DNA of 56,248 nt from a virus: positions 1 through 56,248 of the IMG/VR virus record IMGVR_UViG_3300027917_000053; one strand, written 5' to 3'. The notes under the pieces were generated by a model that saw only the letters and a list, made by a program, of their open reading frames with translations, did not search any database and had not been told where the DNA came from. Positions 9,110 through 56,017 of the stretch are shown here, piece after piece. Within the stretch, counting starts at the first letter, position 1. Each line of letters starts with the position of its first letter. Made by a program: the position numbers and the translations under genes.

Positions 9110-9916
9110 ATGTTTAAAGGTTACGAAAACATTGCTTTACCCGAATATGAAGTAATAACACCACAAACTTTACTCTCATTTACTGTCAGAAGTATGACGG
9201 TTCAAGAAGAGGAAAGGCTAAAATCAAGTTTAGTCACTCCTACCAAAATTACCGAACATTTGAATAGATGTATCTATGATCTCATAGTAAGGAAACCTGA
9301 AGAAATAGTTGACTTCAAAGCATTTGAGCGATTATTGACTACTAAAGATAGAGAAGCCTTATTATTTGGTATTTATCATACTACTTACGATGAGTTAAGG
9401 AATTATGATATCACTTGTAAAGAATGTGATAAAGTATATCCAGTTACGGTAAAAGCAACTTCTACCTTTAATATAGAACTTTTTCCAGAGGGGCAAAAGG
9501 TTTTGGATGTAAAAGTTCCTATAGATTTAAAAATCTTAAAGGGTGTTAAAGTTACTATTAAGCAACCTAGTTTAGCAGATGAAATGGATGTTCTTTCGGC
9601 TTTTAGCTCAAGTAAAAATAGCGAGGTAGTAACTGATAGTATTCCTGTTGAAAAGATTGAGCAAATTATTCCTAGTAAACAAGGTGAAAAGGAAAAACCA
9701 CCTTCTGTTTGGACTGAACGTCATGATATTATAGATGCTATAATGGCAATGCCTCCATCCGATAGAAGGTTAATAAATAAAGAGTATGAAGACAATTTTG
9801 GGAAATATAGTATAAGTCTCAAAATGAAGTCTTATTGTCCATTTTGTAGGGCAGAGCAGGATTCAAATATTGATTTGGTAACACAATTTTTTCGTATGGT
9901 GTACGGATCCGCGTAG
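9110..9916 (+). CDS. Baseplate hub assembly protein, T4 gp26-like
   Basis: Encodes 268 residues with an AAAGGAG ribosome site. The pattern fits the T4_baseplate family (gp26-type): a helical first third, a CKECDKVYPVTV knuckle in the middle, a KVTIKQPS strand, a helical MPPSDRRLI segment, and a C-terminal CPFCRAEQDSNIDLVTQFFR knuckle. The two CxxC pairs probably bind one zinc. In T4 this protein helps assemble the central baseplate hub. The frame ends shortly after a T6 run at 9887-9892, where a +1 shift would join it to the next reading frame. Confidence 0.6.
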   Translation: MFKGYENIALPEYEVITPQTLLSFTVRSMTVQEEERLKSSLVTPTKITEHLNRCIYDLIVRKPEEIVDFKAFERLLTTKDREALLFGIYHTTYDELRNYDITCKECDKVYPVTVKATSTFNIELFPEGQKVLDVKVPIDLKILKGVKVTIKQPSLADEMDVLSAFSSSKNSEVVTDSIPVEKIEQIIPSKQGEKEKPPSVWTERHDIIDAIMAMPPSDRRLINKEYEDNFGKYSISLKMKSYCPFCRAEQDSNIDLVTQFFRMVYGSA

Positions 9917-12470: not shown

Positions 12471-15032
12471 ATGACAGTACAGTCTACCCAGATTTACTCG
12501 TCTCGAGATAATACTAGAAACCAAATTATCTCGTATTTACAAGACTATTTAGAGTTAGAAAATGTTGATTTAACTAAGTCTTCTTTTTTGTCTTATTTGA
12601 TTAATATATTCTCTACGTTAACTAGTAATCTAATGTTTTTCTCCTCATCCGCTTATCAAGAGCAATTCATGACTTTAGCTCAATTACCTGAGAGTGTTTA
12701 CAATTTGTCAGCATTCTTAGGTTATAATGCTCAGATAGCAAATGCTACTCCTGCCGATGTAAGTGTTTTGTTTACCATTCCTTTGACTTTTACTTCAAGT
12801 TATGGTGATGGTCATATATCTTTTACTATCCCTGAGAACCATAAGTTTTATGCTGGAGATGTTATTTTTATTCCAACTTACTCAACCACAGTTACTATCT
12901 ATAATAATGCTACTGCCTCAATCGAAGCCACCAAGGATAATAAGAAATATAGTTTACCATTTACTATGGATACCACAAGTGCAAATTCTTTATATTTTGT
13001 ACTTCCCCTTGAGCAAAAAGAACCTAGAACTTCCTCAGAAGGGAATTCTTTTCAGTATACTATTCCTAATGATTTAGAGACTTATCAGTTTATTACTTTA
13101 GATGTCCCCTTTACTGAAGGAGAATTGACTGACATTGAAGTTTATGTCACCAATCCAGGTGAACCTAAAACTAGGTATACTAGGTATAGTAGTATTTATT
13201 TAATGGATTCAGAATCTGATGGATATGTCCTCCAAATTATCTCTTCTGGATATAGAATAATATTTGGAAATGGACTTATGGGAACTCAACCAAGAGCAGG
13301 AGCAATTGTTGATATTGAAGGTTATAAAACTTATGGAAGTAATGGAAATATTATTGCTGGATCACTTAGTTCTATGGACACGGTGTTAGTTGACGATGGT
13401 TCTACAACTGAAAAAGTTTTGGCTTATACTATAACTAATCCTTCCCCTGCTTCGGGTGGAGATGACTCAGAAGATATTGAAGAAGTAAGAAGTAGAGCAA
13501 TAGCAGGAATAACCACTTTAAACCGATTAGTTACTAGTGATGATTATTCAAAGTTTGACGAAATAGCTCCTACAACACCTATAACTGATCCAATAGCGAT
13601 TCTTAAGAGAAGTGATTTAAAAGTAAATGAAATCCAACTTTACACGAGGATAGATTTTAACGATGCTTTAGTTCCAACTAAAAATGCTATTCACACAGTT
13701 GCCGCTGGAGTGACTGAAATTCCAGCAGGAACTACAATTCCTATCACTACTTTGGACCCAGATACCAATACCTATGTAACTAATTATTATAGAAATCTAT
13801 TTGACATCACTATTGATAGGACTATTAATAATATCGCTTATTATGAATATGTAGTTGACGATGTTACTACTACTCCAGTTATTGACACAACTTATGACAT
13901 TTCCCCATTGTCATCTGATTTAATTTGCACAAGTGCTCGATTTGTAAGAACTGGTTATAGTATTGACGTTTTAGCCCCTTATTCTACCGAAGAAGCATTA
14001 ACTGGGATAACTGCAGTTTTAGTAAATAGAAATACTGGAGCAACTTATAATATGACTTTAGATGCTCCAAATGAGAGATTTACTTATACTTTTAGTAGTT
14101 ATCTACAACTTCAAGATTCACCAATTCAGTTTTATATCCAATTTTATAAAAATGGAAATCTATTTGTAAGATATACTACTACGGTTACTATTCGTCAAGA
14201 TTTAGATTATATGATGATGAGTAATATATCAACTGACTCTACTTCAACTATTGTTTACGATATTCCTGCTGTAAGTCGAGTTTGGTATAATAATTTAACT
14301 ACAACTCAACAATCTCAATTTGAAAGTATAGTTTTACAATCTTTAGTTGGTGATTTGGATTTAACTAATTATAGAATGTTAACAGATTTTACAAATATCA
14401 AATTTACCAATACCACTGGTTATATGTTTAATATGCTTTTAAATAGAACTTCGCAGGCTCAAGTTTTGGATATTGGATTGACTGCAATCCCAGTTTCTCC
14501 ATCAGTTGGTGATCGATATATAGTCACAGGAAATGAAGGTGGAGAATGGGAAAATCATCCTGGGGAGATTGCGGAATGTACTGACGCAACTGCAGTTACT
14601 TGGGCCTACACAACCCCAACTACAAATGACGTAGTATATATAGTTAGTAAGGATACAAGATATGTTTATAGTGAATTTGGATGGATTAAACCCACTTATA
14701 GTATCCCATTAATTATTAGCCTTGATGTATTCAAAACTAGAGACTACACAGGAACTGCAGCAGAGTTAATTAGTGCTATTAAAACTCAACTATTAGCAGA
14801 CTTTACTTCAAGATTTGGCTCAAATGTTGACATTTATCGAAGTGAAATAATAGAAAGTGTTATGGGTGTTACTGGAGTTTCTTATTGTAGACTTTTGAGA
14901 CCAAAATCAGATATTTTCTTTAATTTTGAAACTACTGATTTAACTCAAGCCCAACTACTTAGGTATAGTCCAGAATATGTTTATTTCACTTCTTCTTCAA
15001 TAAATGTCAACGTAGTTGGAGCGACAAGTTAA
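12471..15032 (+). CDS. Baseplate wedge protein, gp6/J-like
   Basis: Encodes 853 residues. The N-terminus (RNQIISYLQDYLELENVDLTK across two segments, then STLTSNLMFFSSSAYQEQF) and the central EEVRSRAIAGITTLNRL with VTSDDYSKF match the baseplate J/gp6 class. Members form the ring of dimers that holds the wedges together and changes shape on contraction. Beta-rich insertions (about 420-720) look like extra Ig-like domains. The gene ends with TAA just before the next ATG. Confidence 0.78.
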   Translation: MTVQSTQIYSSRDNTRNQIISYLQDYLELENVDLTKSSFLSYLINIFSTLTSNLMFFSSSAYQEQFMTLAQLPESVYNLSAFLGYNAQIANATPADVSVLFTIPLTFTSSYGDGHISFTIPENHKFYAGDVIFIPTYSTTVTIYNNATASIEATKDNKKYSLPFTMDTTSANSLYFVLPLEQKEPRTSSEGNSFQYTIPNDLETYQFITLDVPFTEGELTDIEVYVTNPGEPKTRYTRYSSIYLMDSESDGYVLQIISSGYRIIFGNGLMGTQPRAGAIVDIEGYKTYGSNGNIIAGSLSSMDTVLVDDGSTTEKVLAYTITNPSPASGGDDSEDIEEVRSRAIAGITTLNRLVTSDDYSKFDEIAPTTPITDPIAILKRSDLKVNEIQLYTRIDFNDALVPTKNAIHTVAAGVTEIPAGTTIPITTLDPDTNTYVTNYYRNLFDITIDRTINNIAYYEYVVDDVTTTPVIDTTYDISPLSSDLICTSARFVRTGYSIDVLAPYSTEEALTGITAVLVNRNTGATYNMTLDAPNERFTYTFSSYLQLQDSPIQFYIQFYKNGNLFVRYTTTVTIRQDLDYMMMSNISTDSTSTIVYDIPAVSRVWYNNLTTTQQSQFESIVLQSLVGDLDLTNYRMLTDFTNIKFTNTTGYMFNMLLNRTSQAQVLDIGLTAIPVSPSVGDRYIVTGNEGGEWENHPGEIAECTDATAVTWAYTTPTTNDVVYIVSKDTRYVYSEFGWIKPTYSIPLIISLDVFKTRDYTGTAAELISAIKTQLLADFTSRFGSNVDIYRSEIIESVMGVTGVSYCRLLRPKSDIFFNFETTDLTQAQLLRYSPEYVYFTSSSINVNVVGATS

Positions 15033-21163: not shown

Positions 21164-22906
21164 TTACTCTCTATTATAAAAAGAAAGAATGTCGACCCAA
21201 CCTTGATAAGCCTCTGGGGTGTTTTTAATGTTATCTCTTATGTTGGAATTAGTTACTTCCGCTAAGAAATGAGGGGTATTAAAATTCATAATTTCTTGGA
21301 AACTAGCCATACTCTCATAATTTTGTTCAATCTCTAAGACTGGGTCATATTTTCGTACATAGGCACAAAAACTATAAGCTAAAGCTAAGTCATCCCTACA
21401 ATCTTTATCTCCCTCAACTCTTCCATTTGGTTTTTCTACTAATCCTATCAATTCAGTTACTAATCGACTTGATTTAATAGTTTCAGGAAAACCGCTTACA
21501 TATGAGTATAAACCATCGATAACTAAAGGTCGAGTCATCGAATCTATGTTAAGACCAGGGGTAACTTTTCCTTTTCTATTTTCAGCATAAACCATTGAAG
21601 CGACATCTGACCGAGATAAAGTCTCCATTACTTGATTTCCAACACTATTTCTTTCTATAACTATAGTTCCTCGATATAGTGATGCTGCGGTCATAACTAC
21701 TTTACAAAAATCAGTTACTGGTAACTTTCCTTGGTATTCCCAGACTTGAGTAAAAGTTCTATAATCCAACACGACTATAGCACTTTTGTCTTCTCCAAAC
21801 TCAGTCGCTGTGTCAACTCCTATAATATAGTGATTCCCCACAATGGGTAAATAATATTGCCATGCTTCACCGTTAAAGATTTTCATTATTTCAATAGGTT
21901 TATTTTTTCTAGCATTATCTTGAAGAGCCAAACAAGTTGCCTCATTAAAGAAACTACCCCCAGAAGGTAAGAATTTTAACTCTAATTCTTGTTCTATCTT
22001 TTTTAAGTCATTTCCAAATAATTCACATTGATTTCTATACCAAAGGGGATCTTTAGAGATTTCATCAACATCTTTCCAGTGAATGATATAAGGGTTAAAT
22101 ATATCAGTTCCAGAGATCGAAGATTGATAACGAGAATAATACCATTTACCCACACCAGTAGTTTTATTTGGAGTTGATAGAACCACAGTTGCATAAGGAA
22201 CGTTTGCTTTTCTAGCTTGCATTTGATTAGTAGATAAAGCGGGGACTATACCTGTGTATGCTTCATCAATATGGTTGACAAAAGCTGCTTCATCGATGAT
22301 TAAAACAGTTACTGCCTTCCCCCTCAAAGTCTTTTCTGGATTATTTGGGTTAACGGTACAAGCATGACATTTACATCCATTTTCCAAGATAAAACTTTGC
22401 TCAGTCTTTTTCTTAAACTTTGGACGAATCCAAGGGGGTAAATTATCAATCATAGTTATTACACATCTATTAAAATCAGTTGCTTCAGAGGCATTCTTAG
22501 AGATAATCCCTACTACCACATTTTTATAGAAAATACATAACCAAACTATAAACGCCTGGATAACTGTGGTGATACCTATTTGTCGGGACTTAAGAACTAA
22601 AACATACTTTTTATCTTGTACTGTTTTTATTAATTCTAACTGGGGTTTATAGGGGTTCATTAAAGTATTACCACCGGGAAGTTCCAAGTATACAAAATTC
22701 TTACAAAAGTATTCAAAATCTTCTTTAGCTTGAAAGTATTTTCTTAGTCTTTCTTCATCTTTATCAGCTAAAATTTCCTCTATTTCTTCAACTTCATTTT
22801 CTTCTAATTCAAGTTCGCCCAGAACTATCTGTGCTTCTGGTTCTTCGGAATAAAAGGTTTCTTCTGTAAGAAACTCATCACATTCCATTATTCTCATATC
22901 ACCCAT
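21164..22906 (-). CDS. terL: Terminase large subunit
   Basis: Encodes 580 residues. ATPase part: Walker A-like KSRQIGIT (about 106-113), Walker B VLIIDEA (about 201-207) and the coupling STPN motif (about 244-247). Nuclease part: GVDTATEFGEDKSAIVVLDY supplies the first acidic residue, and the later RDDLALAYSF the last. This is the motor that cuts and pumps concatemeric DNA into the prohead. An acidic N-terminal extension (about 1-55) precedes the ATPase domain. GGGG ribosome site before ATG. Confidence 0.95.
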   Translation of the reverse strand: MGDMRIMECDEFLTEETFYSEEPEAQIVLGELELEENEVEEIEEILADKDEERLRKYFQAKEDFEYFCKNFVYLELPGGNTLMNPYKPQLELIKTVQDKKYVLVLKSRQIGITTVIQAFIVWLCIFYKNVVVGIISKNASEATDFNRCVITMIDNLPPWIRPKFKKKTEQSFILENGCKCHACTVNPNNPEKTLRGKAVTVLIIDEAAFVNHIDEAYTGIVPALSTNQMQARKANVPYATVVLSTPNKTTGVGKWYYSRYQSSISGTDIFNPYIIHWKDVDEISKDPLWYRNQCELFGNDLKKIEQELELKFLPSGGSFFNEATCLALQDNARKNKPIEIMKIFNGEAWQYYLPIVGNHYIIGVDTATEFGEDKSAIVVLDYRTFTQVWEYQGKLPVTDFCKVVMTAASLYRGTIVIERNSVGNQVMETLSRSDVASMVYAENRKGKVTPGLNIDSMTRPLVIDGLYSYVSGFPETIKSSRLVTELIGLVEKPNGRVEGDKDCRDDLALAYSFCAYVRKYDPVLEIEQNYESMASFQEIMNFNTPHFLAEVTNSNIRDNIKNTPEAYQGWVDILSFYNRE

Positions 22907-32712: not shown

Positions 32713-33032
32713 ATTGAAAATTAACAACGCATTTTACTTGTGTATACATTAAGTCTATCAAAAGTAGAATGTATAAAACTTGAATATGAGTGAAACCAAG
32801 AATGGTGTTTCCATCCAGTCATAATTAAATATATTATGTACTCTTTTTCAAGACTCATAATAATTCCTTAAAGTTTAGATATATCAAGATGAATTTCTCC
32901 AAAATACATTGCTCGACATGAATAATACCAATTGTTCTTAAATCGGGATAAATAACCAATATAATAAATAATCATGTCCATTATATTATCTGATTCGGTT
33001 TGGGTTAGTTGATTTCCATAGAAAACTTAAAG
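32713..33032. other. AT-rich non-repeat segment beside tRNA
   Basis: 320 bases with no gene and no clear repeat motif apart from GGGTTAGT at the right end. It is downstream of the - strand tRNA and may hold its terminator, although none is obvious. Contains GTATACATT and AATGTATA, which echo the GATACATT form of the sister array; this may be chance. Confidence 0.4.
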
Positions 33033-33105
33033 TGACACCGTAGGGATTCGAACCCTAATGACCGACTAGAAAGGCCGGTATCCTAAACCATTAGATGACG
33101 GTGCC
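33033..33105 (-). tRNA. tRNA-Glu (UUC)
   Basis: A full cloverleaf: acceptor GGCACCG with CGGTGTC (one G-U), a 3-pair D stem, anticodon stem CCGGC/GTCGG around loop CTTTCTA (anticodon TTC), 4-nt variable loop, T stem TAGGG/CCCTA with loop TTCGAAT, and discriminator A. No CCA is encoded, so host enzymes must add it. Position 37 is T where tRNA-Glu normally has A. It stands alone within the repeat array. Confidence 0.93.
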
Positions 33106-40461: not shown

Positions 40462-41463
40462 TTAGGTAAAATCGAATGGACAATTAGATGGATTTTTACT
40501 CAATAAATTCCTTGCTTTTAAAAACGGGGGAGCATTTTTCCAAACTTCAACCATACTTCTTTTACTTATATCAACTCCCCACTCATCGTGATCAGCAAAT
40601 GAACAAGGCATAAATTTCAAGTCTGGACTTATATAAGCAGACTTCCTTCCTGCTTCACAAGTGTCTAAAAAAACTTGCTCTTTCTTAGTAAAATTTAACT
40701 TTAAAGACATAATTTTATTTACTAAACATGAGTCCATTCCCAACTTAAAAGGACTCTTAGATTCTCTCAAACCAGCAAGGAAAAGTTTTATCTTATCATC
40801 ACTTGGAACTAGGTGAATAAGATTTTTTCCTCTTCCTTGGGGTTTGAAAAGAAGAAAAATAACTGCGTTAAGTTTATCTCGGTTAACTTTTTTATTCCAG
40901 ACGTCTTCACCTTTAGCAATTTGTATACACTTGTCAACTGATTCTGAAGTTACTACTATATGTATATTAGTTTTCATTTCATATGACTGAAGTAACTTAA
41001 TTGCTTCAAAAGTGAAATCTTTACTATAATCAGAAACCGCTACCGCTCCACAAAATTCCTTCGCAATCTCAACTTTTTCCTTAGTTAATTTTCTCCCGCT
41101 TGTAGTGAAATTAGGAACTACTTCGTTTTCCCTACAATAAGAAACTATTTCTTTATAATGTTCATGGAGTTCTGGATCTCCCCTCCCTCCAAGAGCACAT
41201 TGGTTTACGAGTTTTTTAGTCTCATTTATAATTCTTTTAAAACCATCCAAAGTCATATTTGGTTGGTCTTTATCTCCTTGATAACATATAGAGCATTTAT
41301 TTTCACAATGACCCATTATTCCAATATCTAGCATACATGGAAAATAGAGACTAAATGGGTCTTCATGACCATTTATTCCTGAAGTTATTTCCATCCCAGT
41401 TTCAGTATCGAATAGAATGATATAGTTTTTATTTGCTATAGTTTTTATCATTTTATTTTTCAT
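40462..41463 (-). CDS. Radical SAM protein with SPASM-like C-terminus
   Basis: Encodes 333 residues. CENKCSICYQ is the CxxxCxxC iron-sulfur site (about 53-60), and a GGRGDPELH segment fits the SAM-binding GGE-type region. The C-terminal Cys residues (DTCEAGRKSAYI, FMPCSF and NCPFDF) resemble a SPASM/twitch auxiliary cluster. Such enzymes often modify peptides. Its partner genes are two small proteins directly upstream. The start is uncertain between ATG 41463 and an internal ATG at 41451. It is not a QueE type. Confidence 0.8.
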   Translation of the reverse strand: MKNKMIKTIANKNYIILFDTETGMEITSGINGHEDPFSLYFPCMLDIGIMGHCENKCSICYQGDKDQPNMTLDGFKRIINETKKLVNQCALGGRGDPELHEHYKEIVSYCRENEVVPNFTTSGRKLTKEKVEIAKEFCGAVAVSDYSKDFTFEAIKLLQSYEMKTNIHIVVTSESVDKCIQIAKGEDVWNKKVNRDKLNAVIFLLFKPQGRGKNLIHLVPSDDKIKLFLAGLRESKSPFKLGMDSCLVNKIMSLKLNFTKKEQVFLDTCEAGRKSAYISPDLKFMPCSFADHDEWGVDISKRSMVEVWKNAPPFLKARNLLSKNPSNCPFDFT

Positions 41464-43449: not shown

Positions 43450-43905
43450 TTAATACTCCACTCTTTCGTCTATAGCATATGGTTTTACAGTTATTCCTAA
43501 GAGACTTTTTAACTTTTTCTGGACTTTATCTCTAAATTCTACTCCCGTTTCATCATTCCCTATTTTAAAAGGATTCATCCCAATAAAGATCTCTCCATAA
43601 GTATTTACGATACTTTCCATCCCAAAAATAGCACGAATCATCGATTCTGTTGAATTTATAAGTACTGAATTATGACCTTTAGTATTATCTAAAAGATCAT
43701 TCATAGAAACAAAATCAGAACCTTTCCATGATCCATCGGTCTGAGGAAATTTTCCTACTTCCCGATATGGAGAGCATAAATAATACACATATACTAAGAT
43801 ATGGATATTATTCATTAGTAAGAAGTTACTAAATTTTACTTCAATACCATATACACAAAAGTTAGTGGAAGAACTATTAGTTACAAAATCAAGTTTAGTT
43901 TTCAT
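43450..43905 (-). CDS. NSSS-motif and IGxxPF-family protein
   Basis: Encodes 151 residues: DFVTNSSSTNFCVYG at the N-terminus, an extended middle, and EIFIGMNPFKIGNDETGVEF near the C-terminus. Start overlaps the previous stop by 11 bases. Same domain layout as the flanking genes; unknown function. Confidence 0.7.
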   Translation of the reverse strand: MKTKLDFVTNSSSTNFCVYGIEVKFSNFLLMNNIHILVYVYYLCSPYREVGKFPQTDGSWKGSDFVSMNDLLDNTKGHNSVLINSTESMIRAIFGMESIVNTYGEIFIGMNPFKIGNDETGVEFRDKVQKKLKSLLGITVKPYAIDERVEY

Positions 43906-44317
43906 AATAACTCACCAATTCACCGATCTCTTTAAACTCGAAATCAGAATTTAACACTTCTTTTATTGAATCATAAACTCTTAACCGAAATTCCTTTCCT
44001 GTTTCATTATCCCCAATATCGAATGGACTCACTCCTATATAAACCATCATATTACTATACTCTGAAAAAAGATCATATTTAAGTTTTAGAAGCGACTTTA
44101 TTCCAATCACCATATTTCTCCTATTTGTAGGACATGTGAAAGTTTCTTTAGAAGGAAAGTCGACTCCTGTTCTCCTAGAAGTATAAGAAAAACGAAAATC
44201 TCTTAGAGGAATGAGAGGATTTACTATATAAGAAATATAAACAAAATCGTCCATATTTTCTATTTCTAAAAACTTTTGAATATCTATTTTAGTTCCAAGA
44301 ATAATAACAGCTTTCAT
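43895..44317 (-). CDS. IGxxPF-family protein lacking NSSS motif
   Basis: Encodes 140 residues. It keeps VYIGVSPFDIGDNETGKEF and a closing region with LVSYYEN but its N-terminus (MKAVIILGTKIDIQKFL) has no NSSS motif. AGGAGG is 14-15 nt before the ATG, a long spacing. It is therefore the same family with a replaced or decayed N-terminus. Confidence 0.65.
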   Translation of the reverse strand: MKAVIILGTKIDIQKFLEIENMDDFVYISYIVNPLIPLRDFRFSYTSRRTGVDFPSKETFTCPTNRRNMVIGIKSLLKLKYDLFSEYSNMMVYIGVSPFDIGDNETGKEFRLRVYDSIKEVLNSDFEFKEIGELVSYYEN

Positions 44318-44342
44318 TTCGTCGATGGTAATCCTCCTTTAT

Positions 44343-44792
44343 TTAATATCGAACAACTTCTTCAACTGCTCTTGGATGATAATCCCCAAAACCTATATCT
44401 TTCAAATCATCTCTAACATCACATTGAAATTCTCCGAGAGTTTGTGTTTTACACATAGACCAAGGAGATCTTCCTATAGCAATATAAACTGCTGCAGGTT
44501 CTTCTCCATACATTTCCCATAAAAAATGATTAATAACGGCATAATAACGAATAGTTTGAAAAAGATAACTTTCATATTCTTCAACGAATCTTTCTTTAGT
44601 AACAGGAAAATCAAATTCCAAAAGTCGATCATTACAGTAATCAGAAACTTCCCTCCAATAAGCAATTAAAACTAAATATAAGTATTTAATTAATTTTGAA
44701 TTTTCAACTAAATCTGTTAATTCTATATCCACCCCGTAAACACAGAATGCTTCGCTAGAACTATTTGTTATAAAATCAAGTTTTATTTTCAT
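44343..44792 (-). CDS. NSSS-motif and IGRSPW-family protein
   Basis: Encodes 149 residues: DFITNSSSEAFCVYGVDI, then YIAIGRSPWSMCKTQTLGEF and VRDDLKDIGFG. It is close to the 43026 gene in its C-terminal motif. AGGTGAGG site before ATG; the first bases overlap the end of the DUF932-like gene by 4, so it is coupled to it. Confidence 0.7.
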   Translation of the reverse strand: MKIKLDFITNSSSEAFCVYGVDIELTDLVENSKLIKYLYLVLIAYWREVSDYCNDRLLEFDFPVTKERFVEEYESYLFQTIRYYAVINHFLWEMYGEEPAAVYIAIGRSPWSMCKTQTLGEFQCDVRDDLKDIGFGDYHPRAVEEVVRY

Positions 44793-47961: not shown

Positions 47962-48822
47962 CTATACCAAGAAATAATCAGGACTAAGTCCGCCAGGAAC
48001 TCCTTTTGAAAGAATACAAACCGCTTCATGTGTATGGATAGACTCAAAGTGTTCACATTTAAGAAGCCAATCACAAATCCTATCATTTCTATCCAATTTG
48101 TCAGCTATTTCTCTAGCTGCATCTTCTACAAACATTGGATATTTAGCCGCCCGGATTGCTAAGAATTGCTCATCCTTTCGTTTAATAATAGGATATGGAA
48201 TATTTACAACAGCTTTCTCTACATCCCATATTACATTCTCTAACCATACATTTCTTGGAGGAATAGTTTGAACAGTTACGGTTGCTAAACTTCTTTGAGC
48301 ATGAGGAAATCCTTTTACATTGTCATTCTTTAAAGCATATTCACTTAATTCTGCTGAACATGGACAATAAGAAGCATAAGGAACTTTTACTATTTGAAAA
48401 AAGTGATATCCGAAAGAACCGAGTCTTCCCTCAAAAGTACAATTATAAAACTCAGGAAATTTTTGCCAGGTTTCTGGGGATTCTTTTACTATTGAGATAT
48501 CAAAATTAAATTTAGCATAAGCACAATTACATATAATTCCAATATCTTTTATTACTGCTTCTAACATTTCTTTTATTGAATTATTATTTAAATTAGTATG
48601 TCTCCATCGATCCAGACATCTCACAAATCTTGACATACTTACACCTTTTACATCTTTTTCTAAATCAGTAAAAATATCTACTTTTGCTTTAACTTCATAT
48701 GCATCTTTGCCATTTACTCCTGACTGAATACTTAATGGAACGGAAACATTCTGAACACCTACTCTATGTAAATGTCTTGGACAATTGGGCCTCATATCTT
48801 GTTGGACATCTGGGAGATTCAA
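47962..48822 (-). CDS. folE2: GTP cyclohydrolase IB (FolE2)
   Basis: Encodes 286 residues from a TTG start that overlaps the previous stop (TTGA), with AGGAGG upstream. The N-terminus (LPDVQQD), the VGVQNVSVPL strand, the SMSRFVRCLDRW region, YCPCSAELSEYAL (metal-site Cys) and a final CEHFESIHTHEAVC segment match the COG1469 family. FolE2 makes dihydroneopterin triphosphate from GTP, the entry to folate and to 7-deazaguanine (queuosine, archaeosine or phage DNA-modification) pathways. No other queuosine genes are visible here. Confidence 0.9.
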   Translation of the reverse strand: MNLPDVQQDMRPNCPRHLHRVGVQNVSVPLSIQSGVNGKDAYEVKAKVDIFTDLEKDVKGVSMSRFVRCLDRWRHTNLNNNSIKEMLEAVIKDIGIICNCAYAKFNFDISIVKESPETWQKFPEFYNCTFEGRLGSFGYHFFQIVKVPYASYCPCSAELSEYALKNDNVKGFPHAQRSLATVTVQTIPPRNVWLENVIWDVEKAVVNIPYPIIKRKDEQFLAIRAAKYPMFVEDAAREIADKLDRNDRICDWLLKCEHFESIHTHEAVCILSKGVPGGLSPDYFLV

Positions 48823-49151
48823 TTACTTCCACCTCCTTTCTTTTTAGAAACCTTATTGCTAAATAAAGGAGGTCTTTCTAGTCCAACAAATAATGTCTTA
48901 CCTGTAGCAGTTTCTAACATTTTGATAAAGTTAGGAAATTTAAGTACTATAGCACTGGGTTTTTGCTTAAAATATACTTCTAGGGATTGTTCTATATCTT
49001 TTGTGTCCATTCGAGACATAGCAGACCTTACTAAATCATATATATCCTTAACTATCTCAGTTTTCAAAACATGGGGACTTCCCGAGATTGCCATAAGGAA
49101 TGGATAACATTCAGTTAATGGTATTTCTAAAGTCAATTCATCGTTTTCCAA
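48819..49151 (-). CDS. Hypothetical protein between RNA polymerase and FolE2
   Basis: Encodes 110 residues from TTG 49151 (AAGGAG site, 8-nt spacing), overlapping the end of the beta subunit gene. Mostly helical with a Lys/Gly/Ser basic C-terminus (SKKKGGGSN). No family recognised. Co-translated with its neighbours, so it may belong with transcription or FolE2. Confidence 0.55.
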   Translation of the reverse strand: MENDELTLEIPLTECYPFLMAISGSPHVLKTEIVKDIYDLVRSAMSRMDTKDIEQSLEVYFKQKPSAIVLKFPNFIKMLETATGKTLFVGLERPPLFSNKVSKKKGGGSN

Positions 49152-52100
49152 CGTTTGATCTCCTTACTCCTATCTGGGTAAAATAGGCATCCATGAGTTT
49201 AACAGATTCTGCTTTCTCACAAAAATCCTCTTCTTTTGTGAGATAAGATAACTTTTCACTAGTTATAATTTCGTTGATATGTTTATTTTTCCTATCAATA
49301 CAGTCGCTTTTAGTAGTAGCAAATTCATCTAAATTCTTTTCACCTTCCATTGCTATAATCGCCTGGTTTTCCATTTCTCCTAATCTTTGACCACCTTTTG
49401 ACTTTTTCCCTGAAAGTGGTTGCAATGTTCTTCTATTATATAATCCTATTCCTCTAGCAGATATTTTTTCTTCTGCTATATGGATCATTTTAAAGAAGTA
49501 ATTATAACCAACTGCTATTTCATTTTGAAAGTGAATATTCCCAACTGGATCAAAGGTGGGAAAAGAATACTCAGTATTAGTATACTTTAAGGCTTCTTTT
49601 AATGCTTCTTCGTTACATGATTTAAATGGTGCTTGAATTATTGTCAAATCCAGTATGAATTGTTTGTCTACAATAATAGGATCAATAATTTCAACCATTT
49701 GCTTGTAATACCATCTATCATCTGTTTGGTCAATAATTTTAATATAATCCAGTAAATATTTCTTCATGTTTTCCTGAGTCTCGCCATTAGAAAGAAGATC
49801 AAGCATAGTCTTTTTCAAATCATGTAGAGACATGGATAGATGTAATTCAAATAACTGACCAATATTCATTCTAGAGATAACACCCATTGGATTCATTATT
49901 ATATCAACTCGTCTTCCATCAGGTAAATAAGGCATTCTCTCTTCAGGTATTATTCGTGATATTACTCCTTTATTTCCATGTCTATTCCCTACTTTATCTC
50001 CCACTCTAATTGGTCGTAAATAATAACCTGCCATTTCTACATAGATTCCCGGAAACTCTTCACCTTTAATCTTATATTTACTAGTAGTAAACTTATTTAA
50101 ATTATACGACTTTATGATTTTGAATGCTTCTTTTTTTCCTAGAAGGTCTATAAAAAAGTTCTGTAATTTTACTTCTTCGTCTTTTTGCTTAGCTACTTCT
50201 TCTTCTACCCATTCCCTGTATTCTGGGATATCAGTAAAATAACCATTAACATAAAGACTTCTTTCAAAAACTGTAGTTGTTTTATGAACTATTAATTCAC
50301 TAACATCTTCAAATATCTTATAACCCTCCATACTTGATAAATCTTTCATTTTTGCATATGGATGACCAATTTTTATGGATTCATATAAGTCGGGTAGGAA
50401 TTTTAATGGTTCCCCATACTTATTTAATGAAAGTAAAACCTTATCTGGAGGAATCATAAATGACATATCGTTATAATGAACTGAAGTAAAAACTCCTTCT
50501 TTTACTAATCTTTCTGATATTACTATTCCGTCTTCATAATTAAAACCATAATAAGTAATAAAAGCAGTTAAAAGATTCTTTCCAAATCTTGTGGCACCAT
50601 TTTTCATATACTGACTTTCTGCTAGAATATCTCCCTTTTTAAATGAATCTCCTATTTTTACATAAACTCTCATAATATCAATGTTGTCAGTATAAGTATT
50701 TCTGGGACCAATCCAAAATACTTTAACCTCTTTATTAGTAGAGTATTGAACTATTAAAATTTTACCATTACAAAATAATACATCTCCATCATGCTCAGCA
50801 ACACAACAAAAAGAAGTATATCTACTATAAAGATGTTCGCATCCTGATTGAACATATGGTTCATCAAATTTTTGGAGCATAATGGCTTGCCTCATTTGAC
50901 TAGCCGCCATTTGTAATCTGGTTTGATCGTCATGCTCTAAAAATGGAATCATTGAGATTGCTACTGAAGTTGGAGATTCTATAATTCTTTCTTTAGTAAA
51001 TTTAAAATTCTCATCTAGCTTTGAATTTACTAAAAGTGATTGTTGAACTCCACAATTTTCTCTATCGGGTGTGTCTACTGGGCAAATTCTTCCAAACATA
51101 CTTTCTGAGATATCTCTCAGATATGCTGGGACATTTTCCTTATTAAATCCTCCGGGGCCTACAAGTGTACATCTGGAAAGTTTAGTTAACTCTTCTATTG
51201 GATTAATGGCGAAATCAAATTGAACTATGTCAGAAACATTACAATTATTAACAATTTGAGCAGAGTTAACATTAAATTTGGGTTTGGTCATTCGTAAGTT
51301 CGTAACACATAAATCATAAATTACCTTTGCTATTCTGGATGTAACTATGTATTCAAAACATCTTATTCTTTTATTTATCAAGTCAGTATCATCTAACCTT
51401 TTAGACCTTATAGCCTTTCCGATTTCCAATACTACGTCAGTACTACCTAAAAGTCTGGCTGACATAATATCACATTTAAGTAAGATTTTCAAAGCATATA
51501 TTGCTGTTTCTCCCTTACTCTTTTGAAAACTCTCAGAGAAAGGTTTTCCTACAATTCTTACATACTCCTCTTGAGTCAGACCTCTATTCATATTTGCGGT
51601 TAAATCAAGTGACCATTTATAAGGTCTTCCTGCTGGAAAACTAAATTCCAATTCTTCTTTAAATATCTCTTCTATTTCTTGTTTAGTATAGTAAGCAAAA
51701 ACTATGTCAGCTAAATTAAATGATTTCCCCATAAAGAACATATGCATATATGGAGAATTATCATTTTCTCTTATAGAAATAGAAGAAATAGAAGTTCTTA
51801 TCTTTATCATCTTTCGGTAAATTAAAGGAATATCAAATAATTGAAATAAAGGAACTTTTCTTTTTCCATTGATAAAGATATAATTATCGTTAATTAACTG
51901 AGGGATAGCCATACTTAAGTCTATTAGTTTTCCATTCTTCTCCAATCGAATTATGAATAAATGTTTTAAAGTATAAGCCAATTCCGATGCAACACTTTTA
52001 CTTTCTTTTATGCCAAATTCTTTAATCTCAAATCCTGCCTCTTCCGCTACCTCTAAAATCTTTCTCGCATCAGTTTCTAGTCTTTCATAATCCTTTTTCC

Positions 52101-52164
52101 TAATAAGAAAACTATTACATTCTAAATCAGGTTTGTAATAAGGATTTATCACTCTTGTCATCAT
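49138..52164 (-). CDS. RNA polymerase beta subunit, single polypeptide
   Basis: Encodes 1008 residues, compact compared with about 1200-1340 in bacteria. Matching regions include LVGPGGFNKENV with GRICPVDTPDRENCGV (fork/rifampicin region), GKNLLTAFITYYGFNYEDGIVISERLV, VGDKVGNRHGNKGVIS and MNPMGVISRMNIGQLFE, and the C-terminal KGGQRLGEME. It is uninterrupted, in contrast to the split subunits of phiKZ-type phages. Start ATG overlaps the end of the beta-prime gene by 38 bases. It catalyses transcription with beta-prime. Confidence 0.96.
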   Translation of the reverse strand: MMTRVINPYYKPDLECNSFLIRKKDYERLETDARKILEVAEEAGFEIKEFGIKESKSVASELAYTLKHLFIIRLEKNGKLIDLSMAIPQLINDNYIFINGKRKVPLFQLFDIPLIYRKMIKIRTSISSISIRENDNSPYMHMFFMGKSFNLADIVFAYYTKQEIEEIFKEELEFSFPAGRPYKWSLDLTANMNRGLTQEEYVRIVGKPFSESFQKSKGETAIYALKILLKCDIMSARLLGSTDVVLEIGKAIRSKRLDDTDLINKRIRCFEYIVTSRIAKVIYDLCVTNLRMTKPKFNVNSAQIVNNCNVSDIVQFDFAINPIEELTKLSRCTLVGPGGFNKENVPAYLRDISESMFGRICPVDTPDRENCGVQQSLLVNSKLDENFKFTKERIIESPTSVAISMIPFLEHDDQTRLQMAASQMRQAIMLQKFDEPYVQSGCEHLYSRYTSFCCVAEHDGDVLFCNGKILIVQYSTNKEVKVFWIGPRNTYTDNIDIMRVYVKIGDSFKKGDILAESQYMKNGATRFGKNLLTAFITYYGFNYEDGIVISERLVKEGVFTSVHYNDMSFMIPPDKVLLSLNKYGEPLKFLPDLYESIKIGHPYAKMKDLSSMEGYKIFEDVSELIVHKTTTVFERSLYVNGYFTDIPEYREWVEEEVAKQKDEEVKLQNFFIDLLGKKEAFKIIKSYNLNKFTTSKYKIKGEEFPGIYVEMAGYYLRPIRVGDKVGNRHGNKGVISRIIPEERMPYLPDGRRVDIIMNPMGVISRMNIGQLFELHLSMSLHDLKKTMLDLLSNGETQENMKKYLLDYIKIIDQTDDRWYYKQMVEIIDPIIVDKQFILDLTIIQAPFKSCNEEALKEALKYTNTEYSFPTFDPVGNIHFQNEIAVGYNYFFKMIHIAEEKISARGIGLYNRRTLQPLSGKKSKGGQRLGEMENQAIIAMEGEKNLDEFATTKSDCIDRKNKHINEIITSEKLSYLTKEEDFCEKAESVKLMDAYFTQIGVRRSNVGKR

Positions 52165-54871
52165 CGCCTATTCTCTCCCCTCCCATTATTCTGTCAAGAA
52201 CACCAGTATATTTTCCTTCATTAAATAAACCTCTAACCATATGAAACTTAGGTCGGTTAAAAGCAAAACCTAAAATCCAACTTTCCTGAGAAGGAACATT
52301 AAGAACACTTTTAAACTGAGGAGCTTTTCTACTTCTATTTTCGACCAATCTCCATTTCTCATCACCATACCACATTAATTGAGAAACCACACATTCAAAA
52401 TGTACTAAGTGGATTTTTCGATTCATATTGTATAAATCAAATAAGTTTCTAGTTAGGTTTTCACAATTAGTTCCCTCTGGAAATTTGTGGAGGAGACTTG
52501 AAATTTGGCTTAAATCCCCGATGATATCACATTGAATCATTTTTTTCTGCTCTTTTCCCACTTTAGCAACACCGCTTGTATGGAATGTCCTAAGTACTAA
52601 CTGGGTATTACATTCTCCTAAGGATTGAGCAGCTATGATTCCAACGTATTTAGAATTTACATATTTATAAAGATTACCATAACATTTTCTACATAAAGTT
52701 TCTCCCAAGCAATATATTGGACTTCTTATTTTAATTTTCGAACCAATGAGAGATTCGTAATTCTCTGGAGTAATTTCATGAAGTTCTTTATCTTCTCCCA
52801 AATAGTATCGAAACAATAAACATTGAGCAATTCTTTCATTATCAACATCTACTTCTAAATAATCTGTACTTCCGCAATCTTCTTCTTTTCCTAAAGTTAG
52901 ATTGACACAAGTAAATATAAGTTTTCTACTTAAATAACCCGATTCTCCCGTATTTACAGCAACATCCAAAAGCCCTTTTCTACAACCATAAGATGATAAA
53001 AAGAATTCTCTTGGTGTGAGTCCATCAAGAAGAGAATGTTTAATTGGTTCCAAGTGAATATTTCCCCTAAAATCAGAAACAAATCCCCGAGCCATAACTA
53101 CTTGTTTTACTTGATCCCAACTTCCTCTTGCTCCAGAGTCTACTATATAAGAGTAAGTAAATGCTTTTTTCAAGATTTTCTTAATTTTATCATCAGCAAA
53201 ACTTTGAAGCATTTCTACTGGTTTCTTAGAATCTGAGAAAATCTCATTTATTATCTCATTTTTATTTGGAATCATCATTTTGTCCAAAGACATTGTAACT
53301 CCAAATGAAGTAGAGAATTTAAAACCTAATTTTTTAACTTCATCTAATACCCTCCTTATTTCTTCTTCAGAATAATTATTTTTTATTTCAGTTAATATCT
53401 GAATAAGTTCTTTGGATCCAACTTGGTAATCAATAAATCTGAAATCTTTTGGTAAAACAGAATTAAATAAAACTAAACCTTTTGAGTATTCTCCATCATT
53501 ATGTTTTACTAATTCGTCATATCCATTTATTTTCCCCCCAGTTAATAAATATATTCCTAATACTATATCCTGATTTGGTTTGGTAGAAAGACTGGTATCT
53601 GTGGGATTAGAGAGATTTTTTGTTACTAAAAACTTATCAATTATTTCTTGCTTGGTTTCCTTAGTTAAGGGTATGTAAACAGCCATTTGGTCACCATCAA
53701 AATCTGCGTTATAAGGATCACAAATTAATGGATGAATTTTTATAACATGACCGTCAGTTAACTTTATCTTAAACCCTTGAATTCCAAGTCTATGAAGTGT
53801 AGGTTGTCTATTTAGTAAGCAATATTCTCCTTCTATCACTTCTTCACATAAACTATATAAGCATTTATGATTAACTTCAATACATCGATCAATAAAAGTA
53901 ATTGCTTCATTGATTAGTTTAAACCTACTCGCTTCAATTAATTTTCTTGCTATTACTAATTTGTACAGTTCTAATACCATAACATAAGGCAGTTTACACT
54001 CATCTAAATTAAGAGTAGGGTCGGGAACAATAACTGCTCTACCTGAAAAGTCTATTCTTTTTCCTAATATATTTCCCCTTATTAATCCTTTTTTCTTTGC
54101 CAATTTAGCTTGAATATGATCATATAAATTATTAACTTCTTTCTGCAATTGCCTATAGTGATGAAAATATATTTTATTATCCCTCATGATATTAAGTATT
54201 ATTTTTTTAATAAGTTCATTCTTATTAATAATAGAGGTATAAATTCTATTTATTTCATCAGTATTATGGACATTTCTTGTCGCTGATTTTCCAATTGGTC
54301 TTAAATCCGCAGGAAGAACTATTACATTACTACAAGTCATACAATCAATATTATCTAAGACTTTTTTCCATTTAGAAACACTTTGATTCTTAATAGCCAT
54401 TTCTCGAATTACTTCTTTTAGTCCTTCCGTTCTAATATATATTTTAGAACCAGTTGGAACTTCACTTCTATTTTCAGCGATTTTATAACTTTCTGTATTC
54501 TGTCTTTTATAAATTATAGCATTCTCATTTCTCATTACAAAGTCTAAAAGTGATTTAGTATGCTTTCCTCCTACATAACATAATAAATCATAAAAAATGG
54601 GATTAATAACAGGAAGACTTAATTTAATTTTAGCAAACCTTTCTCTTCTAACTCTTGTATCTAATGCTTGAACTTTACAATGTGGACACTCAAATCCCTT
54701 TTGAGACATTCCATATGTTATTCCACATGAGCAAGTAAACTTTTTTATCGGGCCAAAAATCTGCTCAGAAAATAACCCCTCCTTATGGAATTTATTTTTT
54801 TGGAATATCTCATGAGTTGTTATTTCAGGTAGGTTTTCACAAAACAAGTCAATATTGAAAAGTTTTGGCAT
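52127..54871 (-). CDS. RNA polymerase beta-prime subunit, single polypeptide
   Basis: Encodes 914 residues, about two thirds of the E. coli length but complete. N-terminal zinc knuckle (Cys48, 50, 62, 65); lid/rudder region GKRIDFSGRAVIVPDP (270-285); LNRQPTLHRLGIQ; the catalytic NADFDGD (388-394), whose three Asp bind Mg; second zinc site (CGSTD and CLGETLCRKCYGN); bridge/trigger loop AAQSLGECNTQLVLRTFHTSG (about 747-767); and a final SWILGFAFN segment. The gene precedes the beta gene, the reverse of bacterial rpoB-rpoC order. GGAGGAG site. Confidence 0.97.
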   Translation of the reverse strand: MPKLFNIDLFCENLPEITTHEIFQKNKFHKEGLFSEQIFGPIKKFTCSCGITYGMSQKGFECPHCKVQALDTRVRRERFAKIKLSLPVINPIFYDLLCYVGGKHTKSLLDFVMRNENAIIYKRQNTESYKIAENRSEVPTGSKIYIRTEGLKEVIREMAIKNQSVSKWKKVLDNIDCMTCSNVIVLPADLRPIGKSATRNVHNTDEINRIYTSIINKNELIKKIILNIMRDNKIYFHHYRQLQKEVNNLYDHIQAKLAKKKGLIRGNILGKRIDFSGRAVIVPDPTLNLDECKLPYVMVLELYKLVIARKLIEASRFKLINEAITFIDRCIEVNHKCLYSLCEEVIEGEYCLLNRQPTLHRLGIQGFKIKLTDGHVIKIHPLICDPYNADFDGDQMAVYIPLTKETKQEIIDKFLVTKNLSNPTDTSLSTKPNQDIVLGIYLLTGGKINGYDELVKHNDGEYSKGLVLFNSVLPKDFRFIDYQVGSKELIQILTEIKNNYSEEEIRRVLDEVKKLGFKFSTSFGVTMSLDKMMIPNKNEIINEIFSDSKKPVEMLQSFADDKIKKILKKAFTYSYIVDSGARGSWDQVKQVVMARGFVSDFRGNIHLEPIKHSLLDGLTPREFFLSSYGCRKGLLDVAVNTGESGYLSRKLIFTCVNLTLGKEEDCGSTDYLEVDVDNERIAQCLLFRYYLGEDKELHEITPENYESLIGSKIKIRSPIYCLGETLCRKCYGNLYKYVNSKYVGIIAAQSLGECNTQLVLRTFHTSGVAKVGKEQKKMIQCDIIGDLSQISSLLHKFPEGTNCENLTRNLFDLYNMNRKIHLVHFECVVSQLMWYGDEKWRLVENRSRKAPQFKSVLNVPSQESWILGFAFNRPKFHMVRGLFNEGKYTGVLDRIMGGERIGDDDKSDKSLLQT

Positions 54872-54904: not shown

Positions 54905-55186
54905 TTATTTCTTTTTTAAACTCAAATGTAGACTTTGATATTGAATTTGTAAATTATTAAAAAATCTCAGTAAATGTTTGCCTCTCTCTGTTATTGGACA
55001 TGACTTTTTCATAGTTTCTGGCATATGTTGATATACTTCTTTTTCTATGCATACTAATAAGAAATCGCATCCAGGATTTTTACATTTACATACTGGAAAA
55101 ATATCTCCATGAAAAGTAATATTCCCCCATTTCAAATTATGCTCTTTTAGTTTTTTTCTTAACATATAATTAGTTATAGGATTCAA
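54905..55186 (-). CDS. Small zinc-type protein, tandem paralog A
   Basis: Encodes 93 residues from TTG 55186, overlapping the previous TGA (TTGA) with GAGGAGG upstream. CKCKNPGCDFLLVC and a later SCPI give Cys pairs typical of a zinc knuckle; it starts with NPITNYML and ends helical. It is clearly paralogous to the next gene. Located directly upstream of beta-prime, so a transcription-related role is possible by position. Confidence 0.65.
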   Translation of the reverse strand: MNPITNYMLRKKLKEHNLKWGNITFHGDIFPVCKCKNPGCDFLLVCIEKEVYQHMPETMKKSCPITERGKHLLRFFNNLQIQYQSLHLSLKKK

Positions 55187-55458
55187 TCTTCCTCCTCACC
55201 ATATAGGAAAAGACTATATTCTCTTTTTATTCCTTGAAATACTTCCTGTAGATGTTTACTTTTCTTAGTAAATGGGCAAGTATGGTAATTTATGTAGTCA
55301 TAGACAAAAATTTTCTTATCTAATATAGTAGTAAACTCACAACCTGGATTAATACATCTATACTTTTCTATCATACCAAACCACGTCTTGGGATTTTTCC
55401 AGTCCATATTATGTTTTTTTAATTTTAATGATAAAACCAATCTAACTATGGGATTCAA
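55183..55458 (-). CDS. Small zinc-type protein, tandem paralog B
   Basis: Encodes 91 residues from TTG 55458 (GAAGGT site). Contains NPIVRLVLSLKLKKHN, CINPGCEFTTI and CPFTKKSKHLQEVF, matching paralog A in order. The NPGCxF signature is shared. Function unknown; probable metal binding. Confidence 0.65.
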   Translation of the reverse strand: MNPIVRLVLSLKLKKHNMDWKNPKTWFGMIEKYRCINPGCEFTTILDKKIFVYDYINYHTCPFTKKSKHLQEVFQGIKREYSLFLYGEEED

Positions 55459-55459
55459 C

Positions 55460-56017
55460 TTACCTTCTTTCTTTCTTAATAAGATTTGGATTATCGGGCT
55501 TATTTTTCATTAATTCAACTATTTCTTCAAACCAAAGTAGCTGATAATTATTATTATCAATACCAATATCATGACTTTTTCCGATTGAGGGGAGACTTCC
55601 ATGACTATGAGCATATAAATGCCAAGAGTTATAATGACTCTTTGGCCACACTCTCATACACCAATGACATAAAACTATATTTTGTTTTTCCCATTTAACC
55701 CGGCAAACCGAATCCATTATATCTATTTTGCTTCTAAACTTGGGGTTTCTTCGTAGAAATTTGATAAGGTCTCGGTCATGGTCACCGGGGATAAGTTTTA
55801 TTTTTCCCTTTAAAGTTGAAAGAAGGTAATGGACAAACCCATCATTATGCTTACAGAATACTAAATCCCCATTAATGTATATAATAGAGTTAGGGTCTGC
55901 TTTCATATTCCATGATGTAATAAGAGTCTCATTCATTTCCTCTTTATCTTTAAATGGTCTTTTGCAATAACCTATCACTTTAGAGTGATTAAAATGGAAG
56001 TCTCCTCCAAATAGCAT
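55460..56017 (-). CDS. Calcineurin-like metallophosphoesterase
   Basis: Encodes 185 residues; AAAGGAG site. The five-part dinuclear metal site is visible: GDFHFNH (about 5-11), GDL (about 50), GDHD (about 78-81), LCHWC (about 115-119) and AHSHG (about 135-139). Such enzymes cleave phosphodiesters or phosphomonoesters, for example 2',3'-cyclic nucleotides, ADP-ribose derivatives or DNA/RNA ends; the substrate is not decided. A structured RNA lies just upstream. Confidence 0.9.
   Translation of the reverse strand: MLFGGDFHFNHSKVIGYCKRPFKDKEEMNETLITSWNMKADPNSIIYINGDLVFCKHNDGFVHYLLSTLKGKIKLIPGDHDRDLIKFLRRNPKFRSKIDIMDSVCRVKWEKQNIVLCHWCMRVWPKSHYNSWHLYAHSHGSLPSIGKSHDIGIDNNNYQLLWFEEIVELMKNKPDNPNLIKKERR

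What the first reader, a model, noticed from the sequence alone, without database searches (positions are those of the whole stretch)
49138..54871. Unsplit, compact phage RNA polymerase with reversed gene order
Beta (1008 aa) and beta-prime (914 aa) are single chains with complete catalytic and zinc motifs, in contrast to phiKZ- and AR9-like phages where they are split. The order is beta-prime then beta, with a 38-base overlap, opposite to bacterial rpoB-rpoC. Neither looks host-derived, given low identity and compact size. This could represent a separate lineage of phage polymerases.
Basis: partly seen in the sequence, partly recalled or inferred. Interest (0 to 1): 0.78.

Follow-up and report, generated by a model that had tools for sequence, protein, structure and literature searches.

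The report
Phage's own unsplit RNA polymerase
This virus of microbes carries its own complete two-part RNA polymerase belonging to a phage lineage described in 2020; what is less ordinary is that most of the close relatives checked carry a second such polymerase, and many carry a ubiquitin-like gene set next to the first.

Summary
Two intact ORFs, beta' (52127-54871, minus, 914 aa) and beta (49138-52164, minus, 1008 aa), overlap by 38 bases, and beta' is upstream. Catalytic and zinc motifs are complete. The window is a 56 kb tailed-phage fragment.

The "separate lineage" reading is right but not new. In trees of both subunits the window sits inside a clade of IMG/VR phage contigs outside all sampled bacteria. 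The chains meet the published criteria for the mReC phages (Weinheimer & Aylward 2020); placement against archaea and eukaryotes was not tested here.

The reversed order is a lineage trait: 79 of 79 relatives, against 0 of 80 bacterial loci. No alpha and no sigma region 2 was found in the window or in 22 relative contigs.

Two points go beyond what I could find in print. (1) 19 of 22 relative contigs carry a second beta', with an unsplit beta2 found in 17 of 18 regions read, also beta' first. (2) In 52 of 68 relatives with enough upstream sequence, RNAP1 lies behind a full ubiquitin-like set (modifier, two E1-like, E2-like, JAMM). The window shows neither.

Verdict: new member of a known kind.

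The parts
52127..54871 (-). RNAP beta' subunit, single chain, 914 aa
   Evidence: relatives; tree
53690..53710 (-). NADFDGD catalytic motif (beta' 388-394)
   Evidence: invariant in A1; NADFDGD in 77 of 79 relatives, GADFDGD in the other two
54677..54733 (-). N-terminal zinc motif CxCx12CxxC (beta' C47, C49, C62, C65)
   Evidence: a CxC...CxxC pattern in 77 of 77 relatives not cut at that end
52682..52876 (-). second zinc site (beta' C666, C721, C727, C730)
   Evidence: invariant in A1; aligns with the Salmonella cysteines; C..CYG pattern in 79 of 79 relatives
53111..53137 (-). bridge-helix segment SGARGSWDQ (beta' 579-587; element name recalled)
   Evidence: alignment with Salmonella rpoC
49138..52164 (-). 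RNAP beta subunit, single chain, 1008 aa
   Evidence: tree
49966..50001 (-). GDKVGNRHGNKG catalytic-lysine segment of the beta barrel (beta 722-733; role recalled)
   Evidence: GDKxxNRHGxKG in 79 of 79 relatives, counting five GDKMANRHGNKG
52127..52164 (-). 38-base overlap of the beta' end and the beta start
   Evidence: 20 of 79 relatives also overlap, 13 of them by 4 bases
47962..48822 (-). FolE2-type GTP cyclohydrolase downstream in the same direction; conserved neighbour
   Evidence: PF02649 9.5e-63; homologue downstream of RNAP in 63 of 79 relatives
48819..49151 (-). 110-aa ORF between beta and FolE2, function unknown, no convincing homologue
21164..22906 (-). large terminase subunit, PF03237, the TerL family reported for mReC
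12471..15032 (+). baseplate-wedge-like protein (shows that the contig is a tailed phage)
   Evidence: phrog_219 1.9e-25
9110..9916 (+). T4-type baseplate protein
   Evidence: PF12322 1.7e-11, phrog_150

Best explanation
The window carries the two-gene operon of an mReC-type phage RNA polymerase: one uninterrupted beta' and one uninterrupted beta, beta' first. SHOWN: both chains are complete, keep the active-site and zinc residues, belong to one large phage clade outside the sampled bacteria, and the order is fixed in that clade. INFERRED: the two chains are made together from one message and form a core without alpha, like the AR9 and phiKZ non-virion enzymes; Mg is held by beta' D390/D392/D394, with catalytic lysines from the beta GDK...NKG segment. 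A phage-specific factor, not a recognisable sigma, should load it on phage promoters through the retained clamp helices and altered flap. Since most relatives carry a second, zinc-less, mostly unsplit polymerase (RNAP2), often near baseplate-like genes, the window's enzyme is most likely the partner made after infection (non-virion type), with RNAP2 the virion type. That last step is the weakest.
For: ORFs and domains. 79 of 79 relative loci (66 clusters at 90% beta' identity) have beta' upstream of beta on the same strand; beta' median 902 aa in 77 uncut loci, beta median 1006 aa. beta' tree: window in a 17-row phage clade (SH-aLRT 100), 27 bacteria on the other side (99). beta tree: phage clade 17 rows (100), bacteria 20 rows (100). 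Profile scores against PDB: beta 357-424 bits for bacterial-type (plastid included), 197 for an AR9-type viral chain (7s00), 158 or less for archaeal/eukaryotic (organism labels partly recalled). mReC markers: TerL PF03237 in the window; capsid PF07068 in 8 of 22 relative contigs. No sigma-70 region 2 and no alpha in the window or in 22 relative contigs of 62-312 kb (controls ring). Second beta' in 19 of 22 contigs, beta2 in 17 of 18 regions read, grouped with RNAP1 at 98 once the AR9 rows are left out. AR9 lacks alpha and omega, and its gp226 binds the core in the manner of sigma (PMC9209446, passages).
Against: No biochemistry. Records are fragments, so an alpha, sigma or second polymerase could lie outside them; the window shows only one polymerase. 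Sigma-70 region 4 family hits occur in 5 of 22 contigs (2 above cut-off; 17 hits in one 312 kb contig, which I read as helix-turn-helix parts of other genes). With the very long AR9 rows in the tree, the RNAP1-RNAP2 grouping is not recovered (the separating branch has support 32). The mReC capsid family was not found in the window, and no control genome rang in that search. RNAP1 also lies on the same strand as structural genes (TerL about 26 kb away in the window), so 'non-virion' rests on weak grounds. AlphaFold of beta alone was poor (pLDDT 64.7, pTM 0.43), so no structural support comes from it.
Confidence: 0.85

Rival explanations
1. A recent capture of host rpoB/rpoC that was shortened and rearranged in the phage.
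For: beta' and beta score best with bacterial RNAP among solved cellular enzymes; much of the size difference is absence of bacterial segments.
Against: All sampled bacteria form one side of a branch without the phage rows in both trees; nearest bacterial identity about 31%; beta' before beta in 79 of 79 phages against beta before beta' in 76 of 80 bacterial loci, none reversed, 4 undetermined.
Confidence: 0.03
2. A phiKZ/AR9-type jumbo-phage polymerase whose pieces were joined again, so that mReC and phiKZ-like enzymes are one radiation with two polymerases each.
For: Two polymerases in 19 of 22 relative contigs, as in phiKZ/AR9 (PMC7598289); a separate C-terminal beta' piece in 6-7 of 18 RNAP2 loci, comparable to SPN3US gp244 as described in that review; 7s00 scores above archaeal chains with the beta profile.
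Against: AR9 branches are extremely long (4.4 and 4.8) and land in different places with low support, so nothing is shown; Weinheimer & Aylward left jumbo-phage enzymes out for this reason (as told in PMC7598289).
Confidence: 0.2
3. RNAP1 is the virion-packaged enzyme and RNAP2 the one made after infection.
For: RNAP1 lies on the same strand as TerL and conserved unknown genes that may be structural.
Against: RNAP2 has baseplate-hub-like genes upstream in 11 of 18 loci, on the same strand in 10 (homologues of a gene with phrog_430 1.7e-08), and a separable beta' C-terminal piece, as in known virion enzymes (PMC7598289).
Confidence: 0.25
4. A cellular or chimeric contig mistaken for a phage.
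For: Metabolic genes (FolE2, radical SAM) nearby.
Against: TerL, baseplate wedge, tail tube and T4 baseplate genes in the window; long syntenic phage relatives.
Confidence: 0.01

Closest known systems
mReC: multi-subunit RNAP-encoding Caudovirales (Weinheimer & Aylward 2020, PMC7481178)
   Same: Unsplit beta and beta' of at least 800 aa with NADxDGD, clade apart from bacteria, TerL PF03237 and (in relatives) capsid PF07068, IMG/VR source.
   Different: The paper's main text does not treat gene order, alpha/sigma or two polymerases per genome (term searches); its supplement could not be read, so I cannot say whether this very contig was among its 97.
phiKZ / AR9 jumbo-phage virion and non-virion RNAPs (PMC7598289, PMC9209446, passages)
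   Same: Phage-encoded double-barrel RNAP, no alpha found; two polymerases per genome in the window's relatives.
   Different: Those are split into several polypeptides; this one is two whole chains.
Cobetia phage Carin-5 and Yersinia phage YerA41 polymerases
   Same: beta' then beta; unsplit in Carin-5.
   Different: Separate, distant branch; Carin-5 has a gene annotated as sigma directly upstream; YerA41 beta' is in two pieces.
Bacterial rpoB-rpoC
   Same: Same two subunits, same active site and zinc sites.
   Different: Opposite gene order, about 31% identity, extra bacterial segments absent here.
crAss-like fused and YonO-type single-chain enzymes
   Same: Phage double-barrel RNAPs (recalled and PMC7481178 introduction).
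   Different: One chain there, two here.

Membership tests
mReC | Unsplit beta and beta', each at least 800 aa, on one phage contig | tested here: met
   1008 and 914 aa; criteria read in PMC7481178
mReC | NADxDGD motif in beta' | tested here: met
   beta' 388-394
mReC | Phage clade separate from bacterial RNAP | tested here: met
   (SH-aLRT, quick searches)
mReC | Separate from archaeal, eukaryotic and giant-virus RNAP | tested here: inconclusive
   No such rows in my trees; only PDB profile scores
mReC | TerL of PF03237 | tested here: met
   window 21164-22906, 3.4e-09, above cut-off
mReC | Capsid of PF07068 | tested here: inconclusive
   None in the window fragment (no control rang); 8 of 22 relative contigs
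phiKZ/AR9-type RNAP | beta and beta' split into several polypeptides | tested here: not met
phiKZ/AR9-type RNAP | No alpha subunit | tested here: inconclusive
   None found in the window or 22 contigs, all possibly fragments
phiKZ/AR9-type RNAP | Two RNAPs per genome | tested here: inconclusive
   One in the window; second beta' in 19 of 22 relatives
Bacterial rpoBC | Placement within bacteria | tested here: not met
Bacterial rpoBC | rpoB before rpoC | tested here: not met
   bacteria 76 of 80 in that order
mReC | Active RNA polymerase in the infected cell | not testable with these tools
   needs expression and assay

The most novel reading that the evidence does not exclude
mReC phages, this one included, run infection with two complete, unsplit, alpha-less polymerases of common origin (RNAP1 with zinc sites, RNAP2 without and packaged in the virion), i.e. 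the unsplit counterpart of the phiKZ/AR9 virion/non-virion pair; and in most of the lineage RNAP1 is expressed with a phage-encoded ubiquitin-like conjugation set (modifier ending in Lys-Gly, E1, E2, JAMM) that tags the polymerase, its factor or host proteins.
Probability: 0.4. Interest if true: 0.82.

Novelty: new member of a known kind. Interest (0 to 1): 0.5.

Why it matters
An unsplit two-chain phage core without detectable alpha would be a minimal multisubunit RNAP and a cleaner test of how such enzymes assemble than the 4-5-piece jumbo-phage enzymes. The pair of mostly unsplit polymerases found in the window's relatives makes the origin of the phiKZ/AR9 virion/non-virion pair testable, and a phage operon joining RNAP to an E1-E2-JAMM-modifier set, if confirmed, would place ubiquitin-like chemistry beside viral transcription.

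Tried and rejected
Rejected: recent host capture; cellular contig. AR9 half-chains in the tree: very long branches, no usable placement, so I dropped these two rows, with L064, L147, L148 and L154. itself had been thinned to 16 of the 27 bacteria and 14 of the 17 RNAP1 rows. In one search the five isolate phages no longer form one group (2 changes). Trees used 'quick' searches only, no bootstraps; mReC rows were 16 chosen of 79, bacteria 27 chosen of 80 and 20 of 21 chosen (one dropped by the length filter). Sigma region 4 hits judged uninformative. Candidate third subunit after beta (110-aa ORF): no homologue beyond a chance hit. AlphaFold of beta too poor to search. TGT/DpdA-type family PF01702: 0 of 22 contigs, so a DNA-modification pathway is not closed. 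Rfam of 29000-56248: only the tRNA. Ubiquitin-like module: absent from the window and from the 22.7 kb L002 locus of a near-identical contig by profile. Paper searches: the lineage and two/unsplit polymerases, ubiquitin-like sets in phages, Cobetia phage; for phage ubiquitin-like genes I found only lambdoid/T1 tail Ub-like/JAB pairs (PMC1779556, passages). Other passages read by term search: PMC7824862, PMC13282480, PMC11835377, PMC9123017, PMC12153180. Of PMC7481178 I read parts 1-3 of 6 plus term searches; supplements were not available.

Full report
What is there. The window is a 56,248-base virus record at 32.4% G+C. On its minus strand beta' (52127-54871, 914 aa) is followed by beta (49138-52164, 1008 aa), overlapping by 38 bases. 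Pfam assigns Rpb1 and Rpb2 domains. Tail, baseplate and terminase genes make it a tailed phage.

Completeness. Aligned with Salmonella rpoC/rpoB, the window keeps NADFDGDQM, both zinc sites, the clamp-helix region, the bridge-helix segment and the trigger-loop motif in beta', and the GDK...RHGNKG segment in beta (element names recalled). Missing are mainly Salmonella beta' about 946-1125 and 1150-1226, and several stretches of beta (among them about 230-350). I recall part of these as lineage-specific bacterial inserts, so 'compact' is in good part absence of inserts. The flap region of beta differs and holds a stretch that looks helical.

Relatives. A scan of 2.9 million viral contigs found 180 relatives; the best 80 were kept. 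One (L002) is a 62 kb contig that is identical over the polymerase genes and further downstream but diverges upstream. The other 79 are about 39-55% identical in the best segment. In 79 of 79 both subunits are single chains (beta' is cut by a contig end in two, L066 and L080), on one strand, beta' first; 20 overlap, 13 by four bases; the median gap is 178 bases. They fall in 66 clusters at 90% beta' identity. In bacteria the order was beta first in 76 of 80 loci, 4 undetermined, none reversed.

Trees. With 49 rows, beta' puts the window in a 17-row phage clade (100) against 27 bacteria (99). With 39 rows, beta gives phage clade 100 and bacteria 100. Isolate phages with their own polymerase (Carin-5, YerA41, RHph_Y65, Va2, 1.031) are distant. 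Archaea and eukaryotes were not in the trees; profile scores against PDB chains fall from 357-424 bits (bacterial type) to 158 and below (archaeal, eukaryotic).

Known lineage. This matches the mReC phages of Weinheimer & Aylward (PMC7481178; parts 1-3 of 6 read): unsplit subunits of at least 800 aa, NADxDGD, deep separate clade, TerL PF03237, capsid PF07068. The window meets the length and motif criteria, sits outside bacteria and has that TerL; the capsid is in 8 of 22 relative contigs and was not found in the window fragment.

Partners. Sigma-70 region 2 and the alpha dimerisation domain were not found in the window nor in 22 contigs of 62-312 kb, while most control genomes ring. AR9 nvRNAP likewise lacks alpha and omega and uses a sigma-like gp226 (PMC9209446, passages), which sequence searches would hardly recognise.

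A second polymerase. Searching the 22 contigs with the beta' profile gave a second, weaker beta' in 19; none in the L002, L055 and L079 contigs, a cut one in the L068 contig and pieces in the L078 contig. The L031 and L074 contigs look alike, so they may not be independent. Of 18 regions read (the 19th, G022, was not fetched), 10 have beta' of 999-1390 aa in one piece, 6 have about 780 aa plus a separate 220-249 aa C-terminal piece, one is cut by the contig end with a separate piece, one is in pieces; 17 of 18 have a beta of 1358-1399 aa, always after beta'. NADFDGD is kept in 16 of 18 (the best pieces of the other two did not show it), and the N-terminal zinc pattern in 0 of 18. Baseplate-hub-like genes lie upstream in 11 loci. 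RNAP1 and RNAP2 group together at 98 when the long AR9 rows are left out, and do not when they are in. The mReC paper's main text shows no mention of two copies or of a virion enzyme under the terms I searched.

A ubiquitin-like module beside RNAP1 in relatives. Clustering ORFs of 79 loci showed five neighbours upstream of beta': an E1-like protein (ThiF 3.1e-18) with a Cys in 64 of 64, a second ThiF-like protein (2.1e-13), a Prok-JAB protein (8.8e-05, below cut-off) with HxHx7SxxD residues in 96-98% of 64, a small protein with weak ThiS/TGS matches in which a C-terminal Lys-Gly is almost invariant, and an E2-like protein with HPN (94-100%) and Cys (100%) in 69. All five occur in 52 of 68 loci with more than 4.5 kb upstream. 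An AlphaFold model of the E2-like protein (pLDDT 91) has Foldseek's first ten hits all from E2-enzyme entries or complexes, but weakly (E 0.14-0.81); in VIA-align the 50 rows listed are E2/UBC entries or their complexes, best Z 5.1, which is a middling score. The window and L002 show none of the five.

How it most likely works. Both subunits are translated from one message and form an alpha-less core; a phage factor recruits it to phage promoters; it probably serves after the start of infection while RNAP2, where present, enters with the virion. Shown are the anatomy, order, phylogeny and co-occurrence; assembly, promoter factor and timing are inferred.

Noticed in passing
L007:6024-10017 and the matching stretches upstream of beta' in 52 of 68 relative loci: Ubiquitin-like conjugation set (JAMM-like, E1-like, modifier ending in Lys-Gly, second ThiF-like, E2-like with HPN and Cys) on the RNAP strand. 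Not in the window.
   Followed up: partly
L186-L203 (second-polymerase regions): A second RNAP, beta' then beta, without the zinc patterns, in most relative contigs; beta' C-terminal piece separate in 6-7 of 18.
   Followed up: partly
window 47962-48822, 40462-41463; L002:2-1579: FolE2, a radical-SAM protein and, in the near-identical contig, a glutamine-amidotransferase-QueC fusion: parts of a 7-deazaguanine route, perhaps for DNA modification; QueC in 11 of 22 relative contigs, TGT-type PF01702 in 0 of 22.
   Followed up: partly
window 54905-55186 and 55183-55458: Two adjacent, similar small ORFs (93 and 91 aa) with cysteine pairs directly upstream of beta'; no family match.
   Followed up: no
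window 55460-56017: Phosphoesterase gene intact here (phrog_547) but read as two shorter ORFs in the near-identical contig L002, which diverges upstream of beta' after 481 bases.
   Followed up: no
window 43450-44792 and L002:4029-5858: Several small proteins in the near-identical contig begin with the same motif (DFITNSS or DFISNSS); window ORFs at 43450-43905 and 44343-44792 match the same profile.
   Followed up: no
window 33032-33105: Single tRNA-Glu (TTC) gene on the minus strand.
   Followed up: no
L060 contig (312 kb): Seventeen weak sigma-region-4-type helix-turn-helix hits spread over the contig in ORFs mostly about 180-290 aa, probably a mobile gene family.
   Followed up: no
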